From the NCBI GenBank assembly GCA_902779395.1, contig CACZBK010000007.1, forward strand, positions 1-64,000: a stretch of 64,000 nucleotides of DNA. Reading direction: 5' to 3'. Shown here piece after piece: positions 8,995 through 26,780 of the stretch. Position numbers and translations under genes: made by a program. Each line of letters begins with the position of its first letter. The stretch's first letter is position 1. Source of the stretch: an uncultured Lachnospiraceae bacterium (GTDB lineage Bacteria > Bacillota > Clostridia > Lachnospirales > Lachnospiraceae). The notes beneath the pieces were generated by a model. It was not told where the DNA came from. It saw only the letters and a program-made list of their open reading frames with translations, and made no database searches.

Positions 8995-9023
8995 TTGACA
9001 AGGGGTTCTAAAAATAAGACAAT
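8995..9023 (+). promoter_or_regulatory. sigma-A-type promoter of the giant helicase gene
   Basis: TTGACA (8995-9000), a 17-base spacer and GACAAT (9018-9023, four of six consensus bases) lie 51 bases before the ATG at 9075, which is preceded by AAAAGGGGATC as ribosome site. Confidence 0.6.
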
Positions 9024-9074
9024 CATTATTGAAATCCCGTAACTCACTATATTATAGAAGAAAAGGGGATCGCC

Positions 9075-12000
9075 ATGAACGATAAACTGACCATACATGC
9101 GGAGGTTATGAGTGCCGTTAATTTTGCGATGCAGCAGAATTCCGTCCCTCTTATAAGAAACATCAGCTTAAGAAACGAAACCGATGAAGTTCTCAGAGAC
9201 CTTGAGATAAAGATAAGCTTCGACCCTGCTTTTGCTGCTGAATTCAGCTGCAGGATAGACAGCATCGAAGCACAGAGCTCACTGGAAGTAACTCCCATAA
9301 AGATAAAGCTTTCAACGGATTATTTTTTCGGACTTACGGAACGCATAGACGGTCAGATGATGATCAATGTATACAAAGACGGCGAAGAAGAAGTACTTGC
9401 CGCCGCATGTTACGATACTGCCCTGCTTGCCTGTGACCAGTGGAGCGGACTGCAGATCATGCCCGAACTTATCTGCGCTTTTGTAACTCCCAATCATCCG
9501 AAGGTGGCAGAGATATTGAACAGCGCTGCCGGTTTTCTTAAGAACTGGGGTGAATCACCTTCTTTTACCGCATATCAGACACAGAATGTAAATACCGTAA
9601 AGCGCCAGATGGCAGCAATATATGCAGCTGTCAGGGCGCTTTCCGTTAATTATGTGGTTTCGCCCGCAAATTTTGAAGGCAAAGGACAGAGGATACGTAT
9701 GTCCGCCCAGATCTCCGAACAGAAACAGGGCACCTGTCTCGATCTGACACTTTTGTATGCATCCTGTCTGGAAGCCGCCGGGCTCAGACCCCTGCTGGTC
9801 TTCTTAAAAGGACATGCTTTTGCGGGATGCTGGCTGGAAGAAGAAAGCTTTGCCGACTGTCTTGTGGATGATGTATCCGCTCTTCAAAAACGTACTGCCG
9901 ATGGAGCCGAAGAGATACTGGTTCTGGAAATGACGGACGCTGTCAGCGGCAAAAATGTAGATTTCGATATAGCGCTTGAACATGCAAGATCAAAACTGTC
10001 AAAACCCGAAGAATTTGACTGTGTCATAGACGTACTCCGCTGCAGAAACAGCAGTATACGTCCCATTCCCTCAAAACTTGAGGATGTAAAAGAACAGTAT
10101 GAAAATGCCGACAGCGTGACTCCCGGTGCCGTGGCAGCACCTTCGGAGCTTACTCAGAATCTTAAGGGCAGTTTCAAGGAAGCGTATGAACCTGTCGGCA
10201 AGCTCAGGCTATGGGAAAGAAAGCTTCTGGATTTTTCATTGAGAAACGCCCTGCTCAACTTCCGTGCTACAAAAAATACCATACAGCTTATGGCTGTTGA
10301 TCTTCCCGCACTGGAAGACGGACTTGCGGAAAATAAGGAATATATCATACTGGAGCTTCCCGCTGAATTTAAGAACAGTCTGCGGGATGAAAAAATGTAT
10401 GCCATTGATAATCAGAAAGATATGTTTGAAGCCATGGCAGCTGAAGAGATGCGCAATCACAGGATACGTACTTTCCAAAACGAGGAACAGCTGGCATTAT
10501 CCTTAAAGAATCTGCAGCGTGCCGCAAAAGTCAGCCTCGAAGAAAACGGAGCCAATACTCTCTTTCTTGCACTTGGCTTTCTGCGCTGGTATGAGACCGA
10601 TCTTTCGGAAAAGCCCAGGTATGCACCTTTGGTACTGATACCTGTGGAATTAGTAAAAAGCGTAAGAAAAAAAGGATATGTACTCCGCAGCCGTAATGAA
10701 GAAACCCAGATCAATGTAACACTTTTGGAATATCTGCGTCAGGATCACGGTCTTGCTATCGGCGGACTGGATCCTCTGCCGGAAGATGAAAACGGTATAG
10801 ATCTTCCTCTTGTATTTCATACCATACGGCAGTCTGTCATGGATAAAAAACGCTGGAATGTCGAAAACATGGCTTTCCTTGGTCTTTTCTCTTTCGGACA
10901 GTTCGTTATGTGGAACGATCTCAGAAACCGTACCGAAGATCTTAAACAGAACAGAGTAGTCAGCAGTCTGCTGGAAGGAAGGATGACCTGGGAAGCTGAG
11001 GATACCGGGATCACTGCGGAAAAAATAGATGAACTGTATAAACCCGAAGATATGTCTGTTCCTTTAAGTGCTGATTCCTCACAGATGGTTGCGATAGCTA
11101 CTGCCTCTCTGGGACAGAGCTTTGTACTTCACGGACCTCCCGGAACAGGAAAGTCCCAGACCATTACAAATATGATCGCCAATGCCCTTTATCAGGGAAA
11201 AAGCGTATTGTTCGTGGCAGAAAAGATGGCCGCTCTTTCCGTAGTGCAGAACAGACTCTCGAAGATAGGTCTGGATCCTTTCTGTCTTGAACTGCATTCA
11301 AACAAAGCCAGTAAAACTGCTGTATTATCACAGCTTGAAAAAACCCTTGAGGTAGGAAAGCTCAAACATTCCGAAGAATATGCTGACAGTGCAAAAAAGC
11401 TTCTTGAACACAGAAAGGAAATAAGCCATGTTCTGGAAGCCATGCATAAAAAACGCTCCTTCGGAAAAAGCCTGTATGAGCTGATCGCCGAATATGAAAG
11501 CGTAAATGCATATAAAGGCATGGTTTCTATAAAAGGAAGTTCCGCTGATGAGTTATCGGCAGATGAGATATCTTCCGAAACATATAACGGCTGGCACGAG
11601 ATATTAAAGGAATACGAAACAGCTGCATCCGCTACGGCCGGGCTTGATTCACATCCTTTAAGGGGCATCACATCTTCCGAATATACAATGGAGATGCGTG
11701 AACGTCTTAAAGAAGAATGGAGCACTCTTTCCGAAAACGCCGTTACCGCTGAAGATGATCTAAAAAAAATAAAGAACGCTTTAAGTATTGATACAGCTGA
11801 TGACCGTAACGGCATCGATATCCTGATACGTCTTGCGGATTTTCTGCAGAATGACGGATACTTTTCGGCACAGCTTGCACAGTCTCAGAATTTCGATCCT
11901 CTGTGTTCGCAGATAAATATTTATACAGGAAAGCTTTCACAGCTCAGAAATGATGCTGCCGAATTGTCTGCCATGTTTATACCCCAGACCTTCACAGGCG

Positions 12001-14942
12001 GCAGCGGGTTTGCCGCGGGCGCTGCTCTGCTTAAGTACAGACAGGCCGAAGGTAGCTGGTTTCTTGCAAAGGAAATGGGTATAAGCAAAGCAGTAAAGGA
12101 ATTAAAACCTTATGCTGCTAACGGTACGGTTATTGATAAAAACAATATAGCAGGCCATCTCGAAAAACTTGCTGCCTTAGAACAGCTTCGTTCAGAAGTC
12201 AACTCTGCTCCTTCTGAGATCACATCGGTACTTGGTACTTTATGGATGGGAGAAAACTCCGATGCTGCAGCTATCACCTCAGTCATAAATAAAGCCCGTG
12301 AAGCAAGGTCATTCAGGGAAGTATTAGATCCTTCATCATATACTTCTTTCATGAATGCTGCTGCTGCAGGTATCAAAGCTCCGGCAGCCGAGCTTAACAG
12401 ACTCAGGAAATTCATAAAGGATGCGGATGATGCCATAACAAAAGAAAAAATCGTTATGGAAAATGATACTTCTGACTGGGTCGGTCTCATAAAAGAGCGT
12501 TTTGATACATATTCGAAAAATACGGATCGTCTTCGTGAATGGACAGGTTATCAGAAAGTAAGACAGTCCGCTGCCGCTGCAGGTCTTTCCAATGTATGCA
12601 ATGCGGTTGAAGAAGGCAGGCTCATGCCTGATAAAGCAGAAGATGCATTTTTCTGTGCAATTGATCAGAAACTCATCTCCGGGATCATATCTTCCGATTC
12701 CAAACTTGCTGATTTCCGAGGTGTCCAATTTGAGGGACTCATTGACAGATATACGAAACGACTTGATGAATTCCGCAAACTGACCATAGCGGAAATGGTA
12801 GCAAAGCTTTCCGCAAATATACCCGCCGGCGGAGGTGAGGCAGCCGCATCATCCGAACTGGGAATACTGAAAAAGGCGATCAAATCAAACGGACGCAGAT
12901 TATCGATCCGTAAACTGTTCGACCAGATACCGACACTGCTGCGTAAGCTTTGCCCCTGCATGCTGATGAGTCCTATATCTGTCGCCCAGTATATAGATCC
13001 TTTGTATCCTAAATTCGACCTGGTAGTATTTGATGAAGCCAGCCAGCTTCCTACAAGCGAAGCAGTAGGTACTATTGCAAGAGGTAATAACGTGGTCGTG
13101 GTAGGTGATCCGAAACAGCTGCCTCCCACAAGTTTCTTTAAGTCCAATAAAGAGGACGAGGAAGATTCCCAGCAGGAAGATCTTGAAAGCCTCCTGGATG
13201 ACTGTCTGGCGATATCCATGCCTCAGGAATATCTTAAATGGCATTACCGCTCAAGACATGAAAGCCTTATCACATACAGCAACATAAAGTATTACGATAA
13301 CAGACTCTATACCTTCCCTTCACCAAACGACAGGATATCGCAGGTAAAGCTTATCCATGTGGATGGTGTATATGACCACGGAAAGACACGTGTCAACCGT
13401 GCCGAAGCGGAAGCAGTTGTCGGCGAGATAATAAGAAGACTCGAAGACAGAAAATTAAGAAAAGATTCGATAGGTGTCGTTACCTTCAGTGTAGTCCAGC
13501 AGAATCTGATAGAAGATATGCTGAATGATGAACTTGCAAAAAAACCCGAGCTTGATGAATATCTTCGTTCATGTGCAGAGCCGGTATTTATCAAAAACCT
13601 TGAAAACGTTCAGGGTGATGAACGCGATGTGATCCTCTTCTCCGTCTGCTACGGTCCCGATAAGGATGGTAAAGTCTCCATGAACTTCGGCCCTCTTAAC
13701 AGGGACGGCGGATGGAGACGTCTTAATGTAGCTATCTCCAGGGCACGTAAGGAGATGATGATATTTGCCGTTCTTAAACCCGAACAGATAGATCTTAACA
13801 GAACTGCTTCAGAAGGCGTTGCAGGATTAAAAGGCTTTCTTGAATTTGCTGCCAACGGACAGGGTATGCTCGCACGCAGTGATATAAAACCTCCTGCTGA
13901 AGATGCCCTGCTTAAGGATATTACATCCGCGATCAAAAACGAGGGATACGAAGTCAAGACCAATATCGGCTGCTCCGAATACCGCATGGACATCGGCATA
14001 GTGGATCCCGATGATCCCGAAAACTATCTTCTTGGGATCATACTTGACGGAGAAAACATGAAGGCTTCAAAAACAGTAGCCGATCGTTTTGCCGTACAGC
14101 CTTCGGTGCTTTCCGGTCTTGGATGGAAACTCATGCATATCTGGACTCTCGAATGGCTGGATGATCCTAAACCCGTTATGGCAAAGATAAAAGAAGAGCT
14201 TTCTCTTGCCGCGGAGGAAAAGAAAAAATCACTTGATGAAAGTGACAGCGATGAAAGTGATCTGATCCCGGAAGAACAGGATGAGCAGACATACGATAAA
14301 GAAGCTGTATCGGATGATCATATTCAGATAGCCGGTATTACTTTTGAAAAAGATGAAGACGCATATGCCGCATCAACACATATGCGTAAATATACTTCAG
14401 CCATTCCCTTAAAGGCCGGAGAAGCGGAACAGTTTGATGTACAGAATGCAAGAGCCATTGCAAAGACGATTCTGAGATTTTTAAATCTTGAAGCTCCTAT
14501 CAGTAAAAAACTTTTAATGAAAAAGACGTTTGCCGACTGGGGTGTAAGCCGTACCACAAGCCGTGCCGAGCAGGTATTTGATATGGCAGCGAAATTCGTA
14601 CCCTGCAGTACTACGACCGAACATGATCAGGTATTTTTCTGGGGAGGCGAACAGGATCCCGAAAAATATAATATCTACAGAGTAGAGGATAAAAATAAAC
14701 AGACAAGGAGCATGGATGATATCCCTTCACAGGAAATTAAGGCTGCAATGGGTGATATCATCTCCCAGCAGGTCAGTGTAAGCCGCGACGATCTCATAAA
14801 ACTGTGCGCAAAAGCTTTAGGCTTTAACAGAACAGGACCGGCAATGGATGCAGTGCTTGACAGCGTTCTGGAAGCATGCATTGAAACCGCCTTCTTTAAA
14901 GAAAGTGACGACGGAAAGATCTTTTCCGGCGGTGAAGTATAA
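9075..14942 (+). CDS. giant transglutaminase-like/DUF4011/SF1 helicase/Vsr-like/DUF3320 protein, putative defence gene
   Basis: Multidomain protein of 1,955 residues. The N-terminal part has a transglutaminase-like core (Cys221 in QGTCLDL, His247 in KGHAFAG). A DUF4011 segment starts near 375 (LWERKLLDFSLRN). The SF1 helicase follows: Walker A GPPGTGKS at 687-694, Walker B DEASQ at 1320-1324, the VQGDERD motif and the VAISRAR motif. Next is a Vsr/MTES_1575-like nuclease domain (about 1615-1700) with Asp1639 and Asp1658-Gly-Glu1660; the acidic residue I would expect just before this DG is isoleucine. A DUF3320 domain (about 1775-1825) closes the C-terminal part. Helicases with this domain set are linked to anti-phage defence. 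It is a single-gene unit read against the leftward replication fork. Confidence 0.88.
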   Translation: MNDKLTIHAEVMSAVNFAMQQNSVPLIRNISLRNETDEVLRDLEIKISFDPAFAAEFSCRIDSIEAQSSLEVTPIKIKLSTDYFFGLTERIDGQMMINVYKDGEEEVLAAACYDTALLACDQWSGLQIMPELICAFVTPNHPKVAEILNSAAGFLKNWGESPSFTAYQTQNVNTVKRQMAAIYAAVRALSVNYVVSPANFEGKGQRIRMSAQISEQKQGTCLDLTLLYASCLEAAGLRPLLVFLKGHAFAGCWLEEESFADCLVDDVSALQKRTADGAEEILVLEMTDAVSGKNVDFDIALEHARSKLSKPEEFDCVIDVLRCRNSSIRPIPSKLEDVKEQYENADSVTPGAVAAPSELTQNLKGSFKEAYEPVGKLRLWERKLLDFSLRNALLNFRATKNTIQLMAVDLPALEDGLAENKEYIILELPAEFKNSLRDEKMYAIDNQKDMFEAMAAEEMRNHRIRTFQNEEQLALSLKNLQRAAKVSLEENGANTLFLALGFLRWYETDLSEKPRYAPLVLIPVELVKSVRKKGYVLRSRNEETQINVTLLEYLRQDHGLAIGGLDPLPEDENGIDLPLVFHTIRQSVMDKKRWNVENMAFLGLFSFGQFVMWNDLRNRTEDLKQNRVVSSLLEGRMTWEAEDTGITAEKIDELYKPEDMSVPLSADSSQMVAIATASLGQSFVLHGPPGTGKSQTITNMIANALYQGKSVLFVAEKMAALSVVQNRLSKIGLDPFCLELHSNKASKTAVLSQLEKTLEVGKLKHSEEYADSAKKLLEHRKEISHVLEAMHKKRSFGKSLYELIAEYESVNAYKGMVSIKGSSADELSADEISSETYNGWHEILKEYETAASATAGLDSHPLRGITSSEYTMEMRERLKEEWSTLSENAVTAEDDLKKIKNALSIDTADDRNGIDILIRLADFLQNDGYFSAQLAQSQNFDPLCSQINIYTGKLSQLRNDAAELSAMFIPQTFTGGSGFAAGAALLKYRQAEGSWFLAKEMGISKAVKELKPYAANGTVIDKNNIAGHLEKLAALEQLRSEVNSAPSEITSVLGTLWMGENSDAAAITSVINKAREARSFREVLDPSSYTSFMNAAAAGIKAPAAELNRLRKFIKDADDAITKEKIVMENDTSDWVGLIKERFDTYSKNTDRLREWTGYQKVRQSAAAAGLSNVCNAVEEGRLMPDKAEDAFFCAIDQKLISGIISSDSKLADFRGVQFEGLIDRYTKRLDEFRKLTIAEMVAKLSANIPAGGGEAAASSELGILKKAIKSNGRRLSIRKLFDQIPTLLRKLCPCMLMSPISVAQYIDPLYPKFDLVVFDEASQLPTSEAVGTIARGNNVVVVGDPKQLPPTSFFKSNKEDEEDSQQEDLESLLDDCLAISMPQEYLKWHYRSRHESLITYSNIKYYDNRLYTFPSPNDRISQVKLIHVDGVYDHGKTRVNRAEAEAVVGEIIRRLEDRKLRKDSIGVVTFSVVQQNLIEDMLNDELAKKPELDEYLRSCAEPVFIKNLENVQGDERDVILFSVCYGPDKDGKVSMNFGPLNRDGGWRRLNVAISRARKEMMIFAVLKPEQIDLNRTASEGVAGLKGFLEFAANGQGMLARSDIKPPAEDALLKDITSAIKNEGYEVKTNIGCSEYRMDIGIVDPDDPENYLLGIILDGENMKASKTVADRFAVQPSVLSGLGWKLMHIWTLEWLDDPKPVMAKIKEELSLAAEEKKKSLDESDSDESDLIPEEQDEQTYDKEAVSDDHIQIAGITFEKDEDAYAASTHMRKYTSAIPLKAGEAEQFDVQNARAIAKTILRFLNLEAPISKKLLMKKTFADWGVSRTTSRAEQVFDMAAKFVPCSTTTEHDQVFFWGGEQDPEKYNIYRVEDKNKQTRSMDDIPSQEIKAAMGDIISQQVSVSRDDLIKLCAKALGFNRTGPAMDAVLDSVLEACIETAFFKESDDGKIFSGGEV

Positions 14943-14943
14943 A

Positions 14944-16080
14944 ATGAAACGTCGTTTCTTAAATACACTTATACCTGCATTAACGATACTGTCCCTTTCT
15001 GCATGTGCCGGTGGGAAAGATATCAAAACTTCTGCTGCTGCAAAACCGGCTGCAGAGCTTTTAAGTTATTCCGCAGGTACAGAGATCACGGATGTGATCG
15101 AAGATGATCTGCCGGCTGAGCCCGAAAAAACATCCGTGGCTGTTCCTGTCGTTACCGAAGCGGATATACCAAAAACAGATGATGCAGCTGATGTAACAAC
15201 AGAGACCGAAGCTGCTTACCCGGAAGATACATCTGTACAGGAAGAACTTATACCTACAGCTGCACCCACACCACAGCCCGATCATTCAAAAATGCCTGAT
15301 AAGATAAAGAATGAACTGGCACCGGCTGTTATCACTGCTGCCAGCAAAGGTGAAACAGAAAAAACCGATCTCCTTATGGCCCAGATCTTTGATATCGATC
15401 CATATTGGGCAGATAAACTCCAGCGTATACTTGATTACTGGAAAGAGGTTAATAAAGAAAGCTATATATATCTGTTTCCGGATGTTGACCGTATCCGTGA
15501 GGATGTGATCAAAAACGGAATGGATACAACCGCTTTCTGGGGAAGGGAAATATTCAGTTCCGCTCTTCCGGCAGATGACAGCCTTTGCTTTGTGATCGCA
15601 GGATTTGAACTGAACAATGACGGTACGCCTAAAACAGAAATGATAGACCGCCTTGTTCTTGCTATAGGCTGCGCACAGAAATATCCGAATGCATACATAC
15701 TCTTAACAGGCGGTCCTACAGCTATGGGTAATTCCGAAGCGACCGAAGCGGATGTGATGGCGGACTGGCTGATAAAACACGGAGTTTCTAAAGAAAAACT
15801 GATAATAGAAAACTCATCTACCATGACCTTTGAAAATGCCGTTTTTTCATATCCTGTGATCAGACAGGATCATCCGCAGATAAATAAGCTTGCGATCGTC
15901 AGCAGCGATTACCATATTCCCATGTGCGCAGTCCTGTTTGAGGCGCAGTGCATACTGAGCGAAGATGATGACTTCCATATGGAAGTATGTGCAAATGTAG
16001 GATGTATTACCAGCGGATACTTTTTTCCTATGGATGAACATAAAAGGCAGCTCATCCATATTATCGAAAATCTGCCTTGA
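14944..16080 (+). CDS. lipoprotein with C-terminal DUF218 (YdcF-like) domain
   Basis: Predicted surface lipoprotein of 378 residues. The signal peptide ends in the lipobox LSAC (Cys about residue 20). A ~120-residue linker rich in Thr, Glu, Ala and Pro follows. The C-terminal DUF218 domain (about 215-375) shows the LTGG motif, a TEADVMADWL helix, the ENSSTMTFENA segment and SSDYH, typical of YdcF/SanA-type proteins of envelope metabolism; the substrate is unknown. The ATG at 14944 is chosen because it gives the signal peptide; GGCGGTGAAG before it is the ribosome site. It begins one base after the helicase stop, so it is probably co-transcribed, though nothing ties it to defence. Confidence 0.82.
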   Translation: MKRRFLNTLIPALTILSLSACAGGKDIKTSAAAKPAAELLSYSAGTEITDVIEDDLPAEPEKTSVAVPVVTEADIPKTDDAADVTTETEAAYPEDTSVQEELIPTAAPTPQPDHSKMPDKIKNELAPAVITAASKGETEKTDLLMAQIFDIDPYWADKLQRILDYWKEVNKESYIYLFPDVDRIREDVIKNGMDTTAFWGREIFSSALPADDSLCFVIAGFELNNDGTPKTEMIDRLVLAIGCAQKYPNAYILLTGGPTAMGNSEATEADVMADWLIKHGVSKEKLIIENSSTMTFENAVFSYPVIRQDHPQINKLAIVSSDYHIPMCAVLFEAQCILSEDDDFHMEVCANVGCITSGYFFPMDEHKRQLIHIIENLP

Positions 16081-18115: not shown

Positions 18116-18853
18116 TCAATTATTTTTTTGATACTTAAGATATGTCTCTATTTTCTCATCTCCGTTTTGCAGATATCCGTCGTATATAAAATCTATTACC
18201 CAGTCAAGTATAAATCCCACATCTATATAATCTGTCATTTCACCTTCATCATGCCAGAATATGTGCCCCGTTTTCTTTTCCATGCAAAGATATTCACCGT
18301 CACCTATCACAGAGCCTATTAATAGATAGTCATTGGCATCTCCTTCTTTAGCCCAGTCGCAATATCCCTGTCTGTATTCTCTTTCTATTATTTCCAGATT
18401 TTCAAACCTTAATGTACACCGGTCTATATCCATTCCGTTACTGAACATATACAGAGCTTTTAATTCATCTGTAAGTTTAATACCTGTTCTTTCTTCAAAA
18501 AGACTGATCGATAAACTGCTTGCTCCCTCATATAATTCAAGATTCATAAGATCAGGATATTTCTCAGCCATATATAGAATAATATCCAGTTGTTCTTTGA
18601 GAATACTATCCTGTGAGACTTCTGCTGTTTTAATATCTATTTCTTTCGGTGGTATATATGGTTCTTCCTTTTCATCTTTTTCGGATCCGGCTTTTTTAAT
18701 TTCAACTTCTGCATTTTTTTGTTCATTTATTTCGGGTATGCTTTTTATCAGATCCGAAAATAAAGCATTTGTTCTTTCTTTATTTTTTCTTTTTAGTTTT
18801 ATTGTTACTATTCCCAATGCTATGACTGCAGCTATAAATAATAAAAATTTCAT
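18116..18853 (-). CDS. membrane-anchored SMI1/KNR4 (SUKH) family protein
   Basis: Protein of 245 residues with one N-terminal membrane helix (about 2-18), a charged linker to ~100, and an SMI1/KNR4-like domain (about 100-235). Family marks are FEERTGIKLTDELKALY, the FSNG turn and the YLLIGSVIGDGEYLCME strand pair. SUKH proteins often neutralise polymorphic toxins, but no toxin gene is seen nearby, and an anchored form is less common. It is AT-rich, like the Pr6Pr gene after it and the DUF3781 remnant before it, which suggests a small transferred patch. Confidence 0.75.
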   Translation of the reverse strand: MKFLLFIAAVIALGIVTIKLKRKNKERTNALFSDLIKSIPEINEQKNAEVEIKKAGSEKDEKEEPYIPPKEIDIKTAEVSQDSILKEQLDIILYMAEKYPDLMNLELYEGASSLSISLFEERTGIKLTDELKALYMFSNGMDIDRCTLRFENLEIIEREYRQGYCDWAKEGDANDYLLIGSVIGDGEYLCMEKKTGHIFWHDEGEMTDYIDVGFILDWVIDFIYDGYLQNGDEKIETYLKYQKNN

Positions 18854-20607: not shown

Positions 20608-21669
20608 TTATCTGTTTTTTGCAGGACATTTATGCGGCATCCCCGGACCATATTGGCATCTGGGACAATCAAAACATTTTTTGTATTGGGCATTATCAAG
20701 CACTGCTTCGCAAAAAGCCGGATCCGCTAAAACAGCACGGCCAAGATCCACAGTATCCACAAGCTCATTTTCTATCAGATATCTTACCTGTTCCGGTGTA
20801 TTTATACTGTTTACACAGGATATTGGAATACGTCCTTTGAAATGATCATGAAAACGTACTCCGAGTGAACAGAATTTATTATAATGTCCTTCATCTTCTT
20901 TTACGGAAGGATCCTCCCACTCTATTCCCGTTGAAACCTGCAGATAATCACAGCCGGCTTTAAGATATTCTTCGCCTATACGTATCGCGGTCGCAACATC
21001 CGGCTCTATCCCTGCAGTTCTGACGGATATGATAAAATCATCTCCGCACTCTTTACGTATCATGCGTATGATCTCTGCTCCGAAACGCGCACGGTTTTCA
21101 TCGCTGCCGCCATATTCATCATTTCTCAGATTAGTCTTCTTTGATATAAACTGATTGATGAGATATCCATGACATCCATGAAGCTGCACACCGTCATACC
21201 CGGCTTTTTTTGCACGGATTGCTGATCTGAGAAAGTTTTCCTGCATATCGTGTATCTCTTCAATACTCATCGCTTTAGATAATATTTCAGGATTTCTTGT
21301 TTCAACAGCAGAAGGTCCGATGGCAGGACCGCAATCCGGATTGGCAGTTATACCGGTATGATTAAGCTGTATCAGCATTACAGCTTTATATTCATGACAT
21401 GCTTCTGTAATTGATCTATGACCTTCAATCTGCTCATCTTCCCATAATCCAAGATGATTTTTTGCAAATCTTCCGCCGGCTGTTACTGCGGTAGCTTCAA
21501 CACATATAAGCCCGCAGCCGTGTTCTGCTCTTTTACGGTAATGCTCTATATGTTTACCGGTAACTTTTCCGTCCGCACCTGCGTAATCAAACTTGACTGT
21601 CGGCGCCATGGTCAGCCTGTTTTTTACGATAGTTTTATTTATCTTTATGGGATCATTTGCAGATATCAT
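20608..21669 (-). CDS. NADH:flavin oxidoreductase, Old Yellow Enzyme family
   Basis: FMN-binding TIM-barrel oxidoreductase of 353 residues. Typical segments are KNRLTMAPT at the front, the LNHTG strand, HGCHGYLINQF and the DEYGGSDENRARF region, and the late DLGRAVLADP. The tail holds four cysteines (CFDCPRC then a fourth ten residues later) that could bind an Fe-S cluster, as in the larger dienoyl-CoA-reductase-like members, but the second half of those proteins is absent. The ATG at 21669 is chosen for AAGGAG ten bases upstream; an ATG at 21732 has no good site. It is placed between jag and mnmE, 19 bases before mnmE, an unusual insertion in this conserved row. Confidence 0.85.
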   Translation of the reverse strand: MISANDPIKINKTIVKNRLTMAPTVKFDYAGADGKVTGKHIEHYRKRAEHGCGLICVEATAVTAGGRFAKNHLGLWEDEQIEGHRSITEACHEYKAVMLIQLNHTGITANPDCGPAIGPSAVETRNPEILSKAMSIEEIHDMQENFLRSAIRAKKAGYDGVQLHGCHGYLINQFISKKTNLRNDEYGGSDENRARFGAEIIRMIRKECGDDFIISVRTAGIEPDVATAIRIGEEYLKAGCDYLQVSTGIEWEDPSVKEDEGHYNKFCSLGVRFHDHFKGRIPISCVNSINTPEQVRYLIENELVDTVDLGRAVLADPAFCEAVLDNAQYKKCFDCPRCQYGPGMPHKCPAKNR

Positions 21670-21782
21670 AGCGGATACACTCCTTCCTGTCATAAGGCTA
21701 TATTCAAAAACTTCCGTATACGATTTTATCATCTTTTACATATATATAAAATATCATATTAGAGCAGATCCGTAATAAGTAT

Positions 21783-25357: not shown

Positions 25358-25386
25358 TTGTATTTTTTTGGCTTTCGTTGTAATAT
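25358..25386 (+). promoter_or_regulatory. dnaA promoter, next to a DnaA box
   Basis: TTGTAT (25358-25363), a 17-base spacer and TAATAT (25381-25386). The DnaA box at 25330-25338 ends 20 bases before the -35 element, so autoregulation by DnaA is plausible. Confidence 0.6.
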
Positions 25387-25424
25387 ATGCGTTAAATTCA
25401 CATATTTTCAGAAGGGTTTTTTTT

Positions 25425-26780
25425 ATGGAACTTTTAAGACAGCAATGGGACAATATCAAACAGGCTATCAAAGATGAATATGAACTTACCGGCATAGCTT
25501 TCAATATATGGGTCAAGCCCCTCCAGTATCTTAAATGTGAGAATAACACAGTAAGTATCCTTGTACCGGGAGAAAACCCGGAAATGCTCAATTATGTCAA
25601 GGTAAACTATACCAATTACTTCCAGGAGGCTATAAGTCAGGCTCTTTCCGATAATTATACGGTTGAATTTACCCTTGAGGAAGAAAAAAAAGAAAATACA
25701 GATAATATAGAAGAAACAGACAAAGACCGTAATGATAATAATCCTGCTTCAAGTCTTAATCCAAAATATCATTTTGAGAATTTTGTCGTGGGCTCAAATA
25801 ATAAAATGGCACATTCCGTATGTTTAAGAGTTGCCGAAACACCCGGAACCGAACTTAATCCTCTTTTTATACATGGAGGATCCGGTCTTGGAAAAACCCA
25901 TCTTATGACAGCTATAGGTCATTATATTACCGAAAATTCTAAAATGAAGGTTCTGTATGTTACTTCTGAGGATTTTCTAAACGAAGTCATAGAATCTATC
26001 AGAAAGAATGTCAACGGATCTTCTTCCATGAGCAAGCTTCGTGAAAAATACAGAAACATAGATGTGCTGCTCATAGATGATATACAGTTTATAATAGGAA
26101 AGACTGCAACCCAGGAGGAATTTTTCAATACCTTTAATTCACTGGTTCAGAACGAAAAGCAGATTGTTATAACTTCAGATAAACATCCTAAGCATATTAA
26201 AGAGCTTGATGAAAGAATGAGGACCCGTTTCCTTAATGGTATGATAGTTGATATAGCACCACCGGAATACGAAACAAGGGTAGCAATACTTCGAAAATAT
26301 GCGGAAAACTTTGATTTTAAAGTTCCCGACAATATCATTGATTATATAGCAAACCATATAAGATCAAACGTCCGTGAGCTGGAAGGTGCATATAAACAGG
26401 TATATGCTTTAGGCCAGCTTGACGGTGATATGACACTTGAAAAAGCAAAAGACATACTTAAAGACATAATATCACCTGATAATCCTTCGGTAGTTACTCC
26501 TTCACTTATATTAAAGGGAGTTTCCGAATACTATAATATAGATGCTGATGATATAACATCTAAAAAACGTAATGCGGAAATTGTTCTTCCAAGACAGATA
26601 TTTATGTATCTTTGCCGTGAAATGACTGATACCACTCTTCAGGGTGTGGCAGCTCTTCTTGATAAGAAGGATCATTCAACCGTTCTTCACGGATATAATA
26701 AGATAAGTAAAGAGATAAACATCAATACAGAGCTTAAAGAAAGCATAGAGGCTATCAAAAATATAATAAAAACATACTAA
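25425..26780 (+). CDS. dnaA: chromosomal replication initiator DnaA
   Basis: DnaA of 451 residues, normal length. Domain I (about 1-85) binds helicase-loading partners; domain II (about 90-120) is a short acidic linker; domain III is the AAA+ ATPase with GGSGLGKTHL and LLIDDIQF; domain IV ends with the DNA-binding DKKDHSTVLHGYNKI signature that reads DnaA boxes. The ATG at 25425 is chosen because AGAAGGG precedes it and domain I begins MELLRQQWD; an earlier start adds unrelated residues. First gene of the rightward replication gene row. Confidence 0.97.
   Translation: MELLRQQWDNIKQAIKDEYELTGIAFNIWVKPLQYLKCENNTVSILVPGENPEMLNYVKVNYTNYFQEAISQALSDNYTVEFTLEEEKKENTDNIEETDKDRNDNNPASSLNPKYHFENFVVGSNNKMAHSVCLRVAETPGTELNPLFIHGGSGLGKTHLMTAIGHYITENSKMKVLYVTSEDFLNEVIESIRKNVNGSSSMSKLREKYRNIDVLLIDDIQFIIGKTATQEEFFNTFNSLVQNEKQIVITSDKHPKHIKELDERMRTRFLNGMIVDIAPPEYETRVAILRKYAENFDFKVPDNIIDYIANHIRSNVRELEGAYKQVYALGQLDGDMTLEKAKDILKDIISPDNPSVVTPSLILKGVSEYYNIDADDITSKKRNAEIVLPRQIFMYLCREMTDTTLQGVAALLDKKDHSTVLHGYNKISKEININTELKESIEAIKNIIKTY

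What the first reader, a model, noticed from the sequence alone, without database searches (positions are those of the whole stretch)
8995..14942. Giant DUF4011 helicase with N-terminal transglutaminase-like and C-terminal Vsr-like domains: candidate single-gene defence system near the origin
Seen: one 1,955-residue protein with own promoter, C221/H247 transglutaminase-like pair, Walker A 687-694, DEASQ 1320-1324, a Vsr/MTES_1575-like segment and a DUF3320 end. Known: DUF4011-helicase-Vsr proteins have been reported as anti-phage genes (I recall the name Hhe). Odd: the acidic residue expected just before DG in the nuclease is Ile, so the active site may use Asp1639, Asp1658 and Glu1660 in another way. 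The transglutaminase-like pair at the front adds a possible protein-modifying activity.
Basis: partly seen in the sequence, partly recalled or inferred. Interest (0 to 1): 0.72.

Follow-up and report, generated by a model that had tools for sequence, protein, structure and literature searches.

The report
A known-type anti-phage helicase, ProA
A gut bacterium carries a very large gene of an already named anti-phage family (a DNA-motor protein with a protease-like front and a nuclease-like back), ordinary in kind but with a nuclease site that has lost its usual catalytic residues, as in its close relatives.

Summary
The gene is real: 9075-14942 (+), 1,955 aa, one uninterrupted frame. It belongs to a named family, NCBIfam NF058533 "anti-phage protein ProA" (2,063 bits, cut-off 1,500, residues 16-1919). 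It is not Hhe (808 bits, cut-off 2,000). The transglutaminase-like front rests on an invariant C221-H247-D266 triad, weak Pfam matches in relatives and weak fold matches. The nuclease resembles the Vsr fold. Its "odd" Ile is not peculiar to this protein: the Glu of E-x-D-G is hydrophobic and the following His absent in 29 of 29 close relatives aligned (window included), while 6 of 8 plasmid-borne relatives, all proteobacterial, keep both. D1639, D1658, D1670 and R1671 never vary there; E1660 does. The gene is patchy: 21 of 35 genomes of the genus, 8 of 196 of the order over cut-off, own included. Three relatives lack the front in the same gene context. The architecture, and proteolysis as a further line of defence, were proposed in 2013 (PMC3710099). 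Verdict: new member of a known kind; open: which domain is the effector here.

The parts
8995..9023 (+). promoter-like site TTGACA-17-GACAAT
   Evidence: consensus scan, 10 of 12 matches; site count in the region not above shuffles
9075..14942 (+). proA-like CDS, 1,955 aa
   Evidence: NF058533 2,062.6 bits over cut-off 1,500
9075..9434 (+). residues 1-120: beta-sandwich
   Evidence: AlphaFold2 model of 1-560, Foldseek hits to beta-sandwich proteins
9435..10064 (+). residues 121-330: transglutaminase-like (cysteine peptidase-like) domain, C221 (9735-9737), H247 (9813-9815), D266 (9870-9872)
   Evidence: invariance, model, weak fold matches, weak Pfam Transglut_core/DUF553 in relatives
10221..10736 (+). 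residues 383-554: DUF4011
   Evidence: Pfam
11073..11510 (+). residues 667-812: helicase domain, Walker A 687-694
   Evidence: Pfam AAA_11; K693 29 of 29
11520..12944 (+). residues 816-1290: fast-changing insert between helicase motifs
   Evidence: mean identity to the window protein 0.33 against 0.69 and 0.79 in the flanking helicase blocks
12972..13772 (+). residues 1300-1566: second helicase part, DEASQ 1320-1324
   Evidence: Pfam AAA_12 1373-1564; D1320/E1321 29 of 29
13914..14201 (+). residues 1614-1709: Vsr-like (MTES_1575) nuclease domain, D1639, D1658, D1670, R1671 kept; Glu at 1656 and His at 1663 of the canonical site missing
   Evidence: Pfam, Foldseek 3hrl and 3r3p
14385..14939 (+). 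residues 1771-1955: winged-helix tail (DUF3320 at 1789-1830)
   Evidence: Pfam; model and weak Foldseek matches to winged-helix proteins
14944..16080 (+). DUF218 protein with lipoprotein-type signal, starting 1 base after the stop codon; probably co-transcribed (inference), not part of the family's definition

Best explanation
A chromosomal member of the ProA family of single-gene anti-phage proteins. Shown: a fusion of a beta-sandwich plus transglutaminase-like domain with an intact C-H-D triad, a DUF4011 plus SF1 (UPF1/SMUBP2-like) helicase with intact motifs, a Vsr-like nuclease domain with an active site altered across its close relatives, and a winged-helix tail. Inferred: the winged helices and helicase engage invading DNA or its replication intermediates; ATP-driven movement is the sensing step; the output is either cutting by a weak or reconfigured nuclease built on D1639/D1658/D1670, or proteolysis by the transglutaminase-like peptidase as a second line. 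Because some relatives in the same gene context lack the peptidase module entirely, I hold the helicase-nuclease core to be the essential machine and the peptidase an accessory effector or regulator. Likelihoods: family membership about 0.95, anti-phage role about 0.75, this division of labour about 0.4.
For: NF058533 at 2,062.6 bits (cut-off 1,500) across residues 16-1919. PADLOC PDC-S37 1,233 bits. Patchy presence: 21 of 35 genomes of the genus (19 over cut-off, 2 in pieces just below), 8 of 196 in the order, 6 of 299 in the phylum, own genome counted in each. At least 6 changes of presence on a gyrB tree of 28 genomes. Relatives on plasmids: 432 of 72,556 records match, 30 with at least 80% of the query in one place. 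Of 9 plasmid neighbourhoods fetched, 8 annotated, 3 hold conflict-type genes nearby: multiubiquitin/ThiF/DUF6527 on two rhizobial plasmids, WYL and ThiF genes on an Acinetobacter plasmid. Triad and helicase motifs invariant. dN/dS of the second helicase part 0.010-0.049 in five pairs; of the nuclease 0.020-0.085 in the three of five pairs where dS could be computed (many dS values are above 1, so rough). Front absent in 3 relatives, 2 changes on the tree, no trace of it in their loci beyond one faint match, same neighbouring genes by sequence.
Against: No known defence gene among 10 further window genes scanned with PADLOC (only weak hits, on MnmE and ParA). 10 upstream genes from 4 chromosomal relatives are metabolic or housekeeping in type. 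Inside the genus the ProA tree shows the same main groups as gyrB (by eye, with small differences), so descent looks mostly vertical with losses, not a freshly moving island. G+C of the gene (45.1%) is close to the window's 42.8%. A DUF4011 gene of P. aeruginosa is core in every isolate (PMC10250203, passages), so DUF4011 proteins need not be defence cargo. The paper behind the NCBIfam name was not found. No experiment.
Confidence: 0.6

Rival explanations
1. The nuclease of this branch is catalytically dead and serves as a DNA-binding or structural part; killing or blocking is done by the transglutaminase-like cysteine peptidase, switched on by the helicase.
For: Three canonical positions are changed in the window protein: helix-1 Glu (Leu1613), Glu of ExDG (Ile1656) and His (Lys1663); all three are kept in 6 of 8 plasmid relatives. 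C221, H247 and D266 are invariant in 20 of 20 of the same set that have the domain.
Against: Relatives L046, L052 and L053 have the same altered nuclease motif and no peptidase module. D1639, D1658, D1670 and R1671 never vary (22 of 22) and the domain looks constrained.
Confidence: 0.25
2. The Vsr-like nuclease is active with a reconfigured metal site (D1639, D1658, D1670) and the front module is only a regulator, for example self-cleaving.
For: Invariance of these residues; three stand-alone Vsr-like proteins of the same genus also have a hydrophobic residue at the Glu position (I-F-C-D). Modular absence of the front.
Against: Those Vsr-like proteins keep a following His, which is missing here. 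A published Vsr-fold protein with Asn at the His position (FASTKD4) was inferred by its authors to have no nuclease activity (PMC11879112, passages).
Confidence: 0.3
3. A host DNA- or RNA-maintenance helicase, kept for genome upkeep and not for defence.
For: Mostly vertical descent in the genus, housekeeping-type neighbours, position near dnaA, SMUBP-2/UPF1/DNA2-type matches, a core DUF4011 gene in P. aeruginosa.
Against: Absent from 14 of 35 genomes of the genus including near-complete ones such as G002, G007 and G028; rare over cut-off in the order and phylum; found on plasmids; curated as anti-phage.
Confidence: 0.12

Closest known systems
ProA anti-phage protein (NCBIfam NF058533)
   Same: Full-length match, all domains, score far over the curated cut-off; five relatives tested, among them Bacteroides finegoldii, Acinetobacter and Raoultella plasmid proteins, are members too
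   Different: The window protein and its close relatives lack the canonical Glu and His of the nuclease, which 6 of 8 plasmid-borne relatives (all proteobacterial) keep
Hhe (NCBIfam NF042953, PADLOC PDLC02194)
   Same: Strong partial match over the helicase and nuclease part
   Different: Score 808 against cut-off 2,000; no HEPN family found here; a transglutaminase-like front here. That Hhe carries a HEPN domain is recalled, not from a call
PADLOC candidate PDC-S37
   Same: 1,233 bits over residues 376-1940
   Different: Its profile of 1,550 positions starts at DUF4011 and so seems to describe the form without the front module, like L046, L052 and L053 (inference)
MTES_1575-type giant proteins (Biol Direct 2013, PMC3710099)
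   Same: Transglutaminase-like peptidase, SF1 helicase, Vsr REase and winged helices; proteolysis proposed there as a further line of defence (passages)
   Different: Those carry a HEPN domain; none found here

Membership tests
ProA (NF058533) | whole-protein score over the curated cut-off of 1,500 bits, full-length coverage | tested here: met
   2,062.6 bits, residues 16-1919, profile 1-1903 of 1903
ProA (NF058533) | anti-phage activity | not testable with these tools
   rests on the family name; source paper not found
Hhe (NF042953) | score over the curated cut-off of 2,000 bits | tested here: not met
   808 bits
Hhe (NF042953) | HEPN domain (recalled as a defining part) | tested here: not met
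   no HEPN family at E <= 0.01; residues 1-120 modelled as beta-sandwich
Transglutaminase-like superfamily | C-H-D triad | tested here: met
   C221, H247, D266 in 20 of 20 rows with the domain and in 26 of 26; which Asp completes the triad is inferred
Transglutaminase-like superfamily | sequence profile match over cut-off | tested here: not met
   window protein Transglut_core E 0.11, 13.2 bits against 23; weak matches in 14 of 19 aligned members, best E 1.9e-4; 0 of 8 plasmid relatives over a cut-off
Transglutaminase-like superfamily | fold | tested here: inconclusive
   Model has C221 at a helix start and H247 at a strand start (mean pLDDT 71, 257-266 below 50). Foldseek lists transglutaminase 2 (9bc4 E 1.3e-4 prob 0.96; 9bc3 E 2.1e-4 prob 0.91) and fish transglutaminase 1g0d (E 9.9e-4, prob 0.87), but with TM 0.15-0.16 of query and rmsd 16-17 A, and most hits are to the beta-sandwich alone
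Vsr/MTES_1575 nuclease | domain profile and fold | tested here: met
   PF18741 76.3 bits against 38.2; 3hrl TMt 0.72, 3r3p TMt 0.72-0.78, prob 1.00, but E only 8e-3 to 2e-2 and no hit at E <= 0.001
Vsr/MTES_1575 nuclease | set of acidic and His residues kept in canonical relatives (Glu in helix 1, Asp, Glu-x-Asp-Gly, His) | tested here: not met
   only the two Asp are kept; Leu1613, Ile1656, Lys1663 instead
SF1 helicase | Walker A, Walker B and both ATPase-type domains | tested here: met

The most novel reading that the evidence does not exclude
In the Bacillota and Bacteroidota branch of ProA the nuclease has become a DNA-reading pseudo-enzyme and defence is carried out by a helicase-triggered transglutaminase-like protease, so that a DNA motor detects the invader and destroys or modifies proteins instead of nucleic acid.
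Probability: 0.2. Interest if true: 0.65.

Novelty: new member of a known kind. Interest (0 to 1): 0.35.

Why it matters
The family is already named as anti-phage, so the gene itself is one more member. What is useful is the natural variation around it: members with a canonical nuclease, members with three canonical nuclease residues replaced, members without the protease-like front in the same gene context, and members without the winged-helix tail. That set lets the question raised in 2013, which enzyme of these giant proteins does the work, be tested directly by comparing natural forms.

Tried and rejected
Empty site: I first read L092 (genome G031) as the ancestral site without the gene. 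The closer comparison shows the flanking genes in swapped order, so it shows only that the region is plastic; rejected. Defence island in the window: PADLOC on 10 further genes gave only weak matches of MnmE and ParA. A second conserved partner gene: upstream genes are shared inside close groups and differ between groups; rejected. Linking the DUF218 gene to ProA: it lies 1 base downstream here, but in G031 the two are about 28 kb apart on one contig; lineage-specific. Foreign composition: G+C 45.1% against 42.8%; not foreign. Viral contigs: no relative found with the peptide patterns used. E. coli: no near match of the Raoultella gene in the collection of 5,426 genomes; distant relatives were not sought there. 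Solved structures: no sequence match for the front, one poor match, 3hrl at E 0.41, for the last part. Literature for the name ProA: nothing relevant seen in a library of open-licence PubMed Central papers. D1610, an acidic candidate in helix 1, is Asp in 14 of 14 close relatives but in none of 8 plasmid relatives, so it is at most a branch feature. The direction 'front lost' is an inference from nesting on the tree; front-less relatives below the ProA cut-off exist elsewhere in the order and phylum (matches starting near profile position 345-358), so the front may also have been gained early in this family.
Full report
Observation. The window holds one uninterrupted frame, 9075-14942 (+), 1,955 aa, in a 3.58 Mb genome of 56 contigs in which it is the only DUF4011 match and the only MTES_1575 match at E <= 0.001. 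The nearest named relatives are Lachnospiraceae metagenome assemblies from goat and sheep. The gene ends about 10 kb from dnaA (25368-26780), so 'near the origin' is right. A promoter-like site lies at 8995-9023, but such sites are no more frequent in the region than in shuffled sequence.

Family. NCBIfam places the protein in NF058533, 'anti-phage protein ProA', an equivalog model: 2,062.6 bits against a cut-off of 1,500, residues 16-1919. The Hhe model gives 808 bits against a cut-off of 2,000. PADLOC gives PDC-S37 1,233 bits and Hhe 561 bits. Pfam gives DUF4011, AAA_11, AAA_12, MTES_1575 and DUF3320 over cut-off, and no HEPN. Relatives from Bacteroides finegoldii, Acinetobacter sp. M131, Raoultella sp. 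DY2415, a front-less Ruminococcus protein (L053) and a tail-less protein (L019) all pass the ProA cut-off: 5 of 5 tested. I could not find the paper behind the name (the library holds open-licence papers only), so the anti-phage role rests on the curated family name.

Front domain. Residues 1-120 are modelled as a beta-sandwich, followed by a domain in which C221 starts a helix and H247 starts a strand (19 sequences, mean pLDDT 71.3; the stretch 257-266, which holds D265 and D266, is below 50, so the place of the Asp is not settled by the model). Foldseek lists mostly beta-sandwich proteins, but also transglutaminase 2 twice (E 1.3e-4 and 2.1e-4, 363 and 379 columns) and a fish transglutaminase (E 9.9e-4, 397 columns); these superpose poorly as wholes (TM 0.15-0.16 of the query, rmsd 16-17 A). 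Pfam Transglut_core matches 14 of 19 aligned members weakly (best E 1.9e-4) and DUF553 13 of 19; the window protein itself has E 0.11, below cut-off; of 8 plasmid relatives none passes a cut-off. C221, H247 and D266 are invariant in 20 of 20 rows with the domain in the broad set. Taken together I read the domain as transglutaminase-like, peptidase or transferase undecided; no single line is decisive.

Nuclease. The Pfam domain is clear (76.3 bits against 38.2). The model of residues 1595-1955 matches 3hrl (TMt 0.72) and the I-Bth0305I catalytic domain 3r3p (TMt 0.72-0.78) with probability 1.00, though E-values are only 8e-3 to 2e-2 and nothing reaches 0.001. In 29 aligned proteins, window included, D1639, D1658, G1659, D1670 and R1671 never vary, residue 1656 is Ile, Leu, Met or Val in all 29, residue 1663 is never His, and residue 1660 is Glu in 12. 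Among 22 proteins that include 8 plasmid-borne relatives, 6 (Thioclava, Raoultella, Rhizobium, Gluconobacter, Salinivibrio, Sinorhizobium) have Glu at 1613, Glu at 1656 and His at 1663; B. finegoldii keeps only Glu1613, Acinetobacter none; of the other 14 rows (the window and close relatives) one (L041) has Glu at 1613 and none has Glu1656 or His1663. Other nuclease-bearing proteins of the genus keep E-x-D-G and a His or, in three stand-alone Vsr-like proteins, I-F-C-D and a His. On a tree of the DUF4011-helicase part the state of 1656 changes once at the least; Acinetobacter sits on a long branch beside the Glu-bearing group, and the program warns of that branch. Nuclease dN/dS is 0.084, 0.085 and 0.020 in the three pairs where dS was computable; two pairs were saturated. 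The domain looks constrained, not drifting. FASTKD4, a Vsr-fold protein with Asn at the His position, was inferred by its authors to lack nuclease activity (PMC11879112, passages read).

Modules. L046, L052 and L053 begin at DUF4011 (1,558-1,567 aa), and no trace of the front is found in their loci beyond chance-level matches and a faint match of the first 18 residues in L052 (E 0.027). They lie in the same gene context as front-bearing relatives: L052 shares with L042 the upstream gene (81%) and two downstream genes (86%, 85%); L046 and L053 share with L048 four upstream genes (95-96%, 46-48%, 83-85%, 72-73%). On the ProA tree the state changes twice. The simplest reading is two losses; front-less relatives below the ProA cut-off also occur elsewhere in the order and phylum. 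L018, L019 and L020 end after the nuclease. Front and tail are therefore optional; the helicase motifs and the nuclease Asp pair are present in 29 of 29 rows.

Distribution. In the genus 19 of 35 genomes, own included, have a match over cut-off and 2 more have long matches in pieces just under it (G012, G021); 14 have none of that kind, of which G013 and G025 hold partial matches. In the order 8 of 196 and in the phylum 6 of 299 are over cut-off, own included in each. On a gyrB tree of 28 genomes (16 with, 12 without; G023 dropped for a broken gyrB, and G003, G008, G009, G021, G029 and G033 without a usable gyrB locus) presence changes at least 6 times; no shuffle control was made. The ProA tree shows the same main groups as gyrB by eye, with small differences such as the order of G006 and G022, so descent inside the genus looks mostly vertical with losses. 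Position differs: neighbours are alike only within close groups; the closest relatives L032 and L033 are followed by a hybrid histidine kinase gene, the window gene by a DUF218 lipoprotein gene starting one base after its stop.

Mobile elements and neighbours. 432 of 72,556 plasmid records match the protein, 30 with 80% or more of the query in one place; the front alone matches 76 records. Two of 50,697 phage records match, one over 99% of the query (MT836269, 40% identical, unannotated). No viral-contig relative was found with the patterns used. I fetched nine plasmid neighbourhoods, one of them unannotated. Two rhizobial plasmids carry multiubiquitin/ThiF/DUF6527 genes nearby and an Acinetobacter plasmid WYL and ThiF genes. 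A Gluconobacter plasmid has a short restriction endonuclease gene and toxin-antitoxin genes, a Salinivibrio plasmid a JAB-domain gene directly downstream and a HipA-domain gene, a Bacteroides plasmid a reverse transcriptase family gene directly downstream, a Thioclava plasmid type VI secretion genes; around the Raoultella gene lie metabolic genes and an IS110 transposase. In the window and in the chromosomal relatives examined neighbours are ordinary.

Prior art. PMC3710099 (2013; passages read) describes giant proteins that join HEPN, transglutaminase-like peptidase, SF1 helicase, a Vsr-family REase (MTES_1575) and winged helices overlapping DUF3320, proposes that they recognise invading DNA through the winged helices, and suggests protein cleavage as a further line of defence. 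PMC10250203 (passages read) reports a DUF4011 gene in every P. aeruginosa isolate as a flank of a defence hotspot, a caution that not every DUF4011 gene is cargo.

Mechanism. Shown: domain make-up, intact helicase and C-H-D motifs, altered nuclease site, optional front and tail. Inferred: DNA engagement by the winged-helix tail and helicase, ATP-driven sensing, and an output by a reconfigured nuclease or by the peptidase-like front. The front-less natural forms, which have the same altered nuclease, speak against the peptidase being the only effector; the loss of three canonical residues speaks against an ordinary nuclease. I favour a helicase-nuclease core with an accessory peptidase, at about 0.4.

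Noticed in passing
window 14944-16080 (+): DUF218 protein with a lipoprotein-type signal (LSAC) begins one base after the ProA stop; the longer ORF from 14848 overlapping ProA is probably not the real start.
   Followed up: partly
window 18116-18853 (-): SUKH-1 (SMI1/KNR4) family gene beside mnmE near the origin; such genes are often immunity proteins against toxins (recalled).
   Followed up: no
window 20608-21732 (-): An FMN oxidoreductase gene sits between jag and mnmE, and the mnmE ORF (TTG start) overlaps it by about 90 bases.
   Followed up: no
L046, L052, L053: Relatives that lack the transglutaminase-like front while close relatives (L048; L042) in the same gene context have it.
   Followed up: yes
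L032 13850-18325, L033 13851-18314: A giant hybrid histidine kinase gene (Cache sensor, HisKA, response regulator, Hpt) directly follows ProA in the two closest relatives.
   Followed up: partly
G025:C53 (L028), G013:C42 (L026): Frames beside a GH43 gene match ProA only in parts: in G025 in the insert and the tail, skipping the second helicase part and the nuclease; in G013 in the tail.
   Followed up: no
L136 and L170 (rhizobial plasmids): ProA relatives lie within about 8 kb of multiubiquitin, ThiF and DUF6527 genes and near DNA repair exonuclease genes.
   Followed up: no
phage record MT836269.1: A short record named Bacteriophage sp. from human faeces carries a near full-length ProA relative, 40% identical; whether it is truly phage is unknown.
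   Followed up: no
G031:C10: In this relative gyrB, a DUF218 gene and ProA lie on one contig at about 5, 42 and 71 kb, so ProA is within about 65 kb of gyrB there too but in another place.
   Followed up: no
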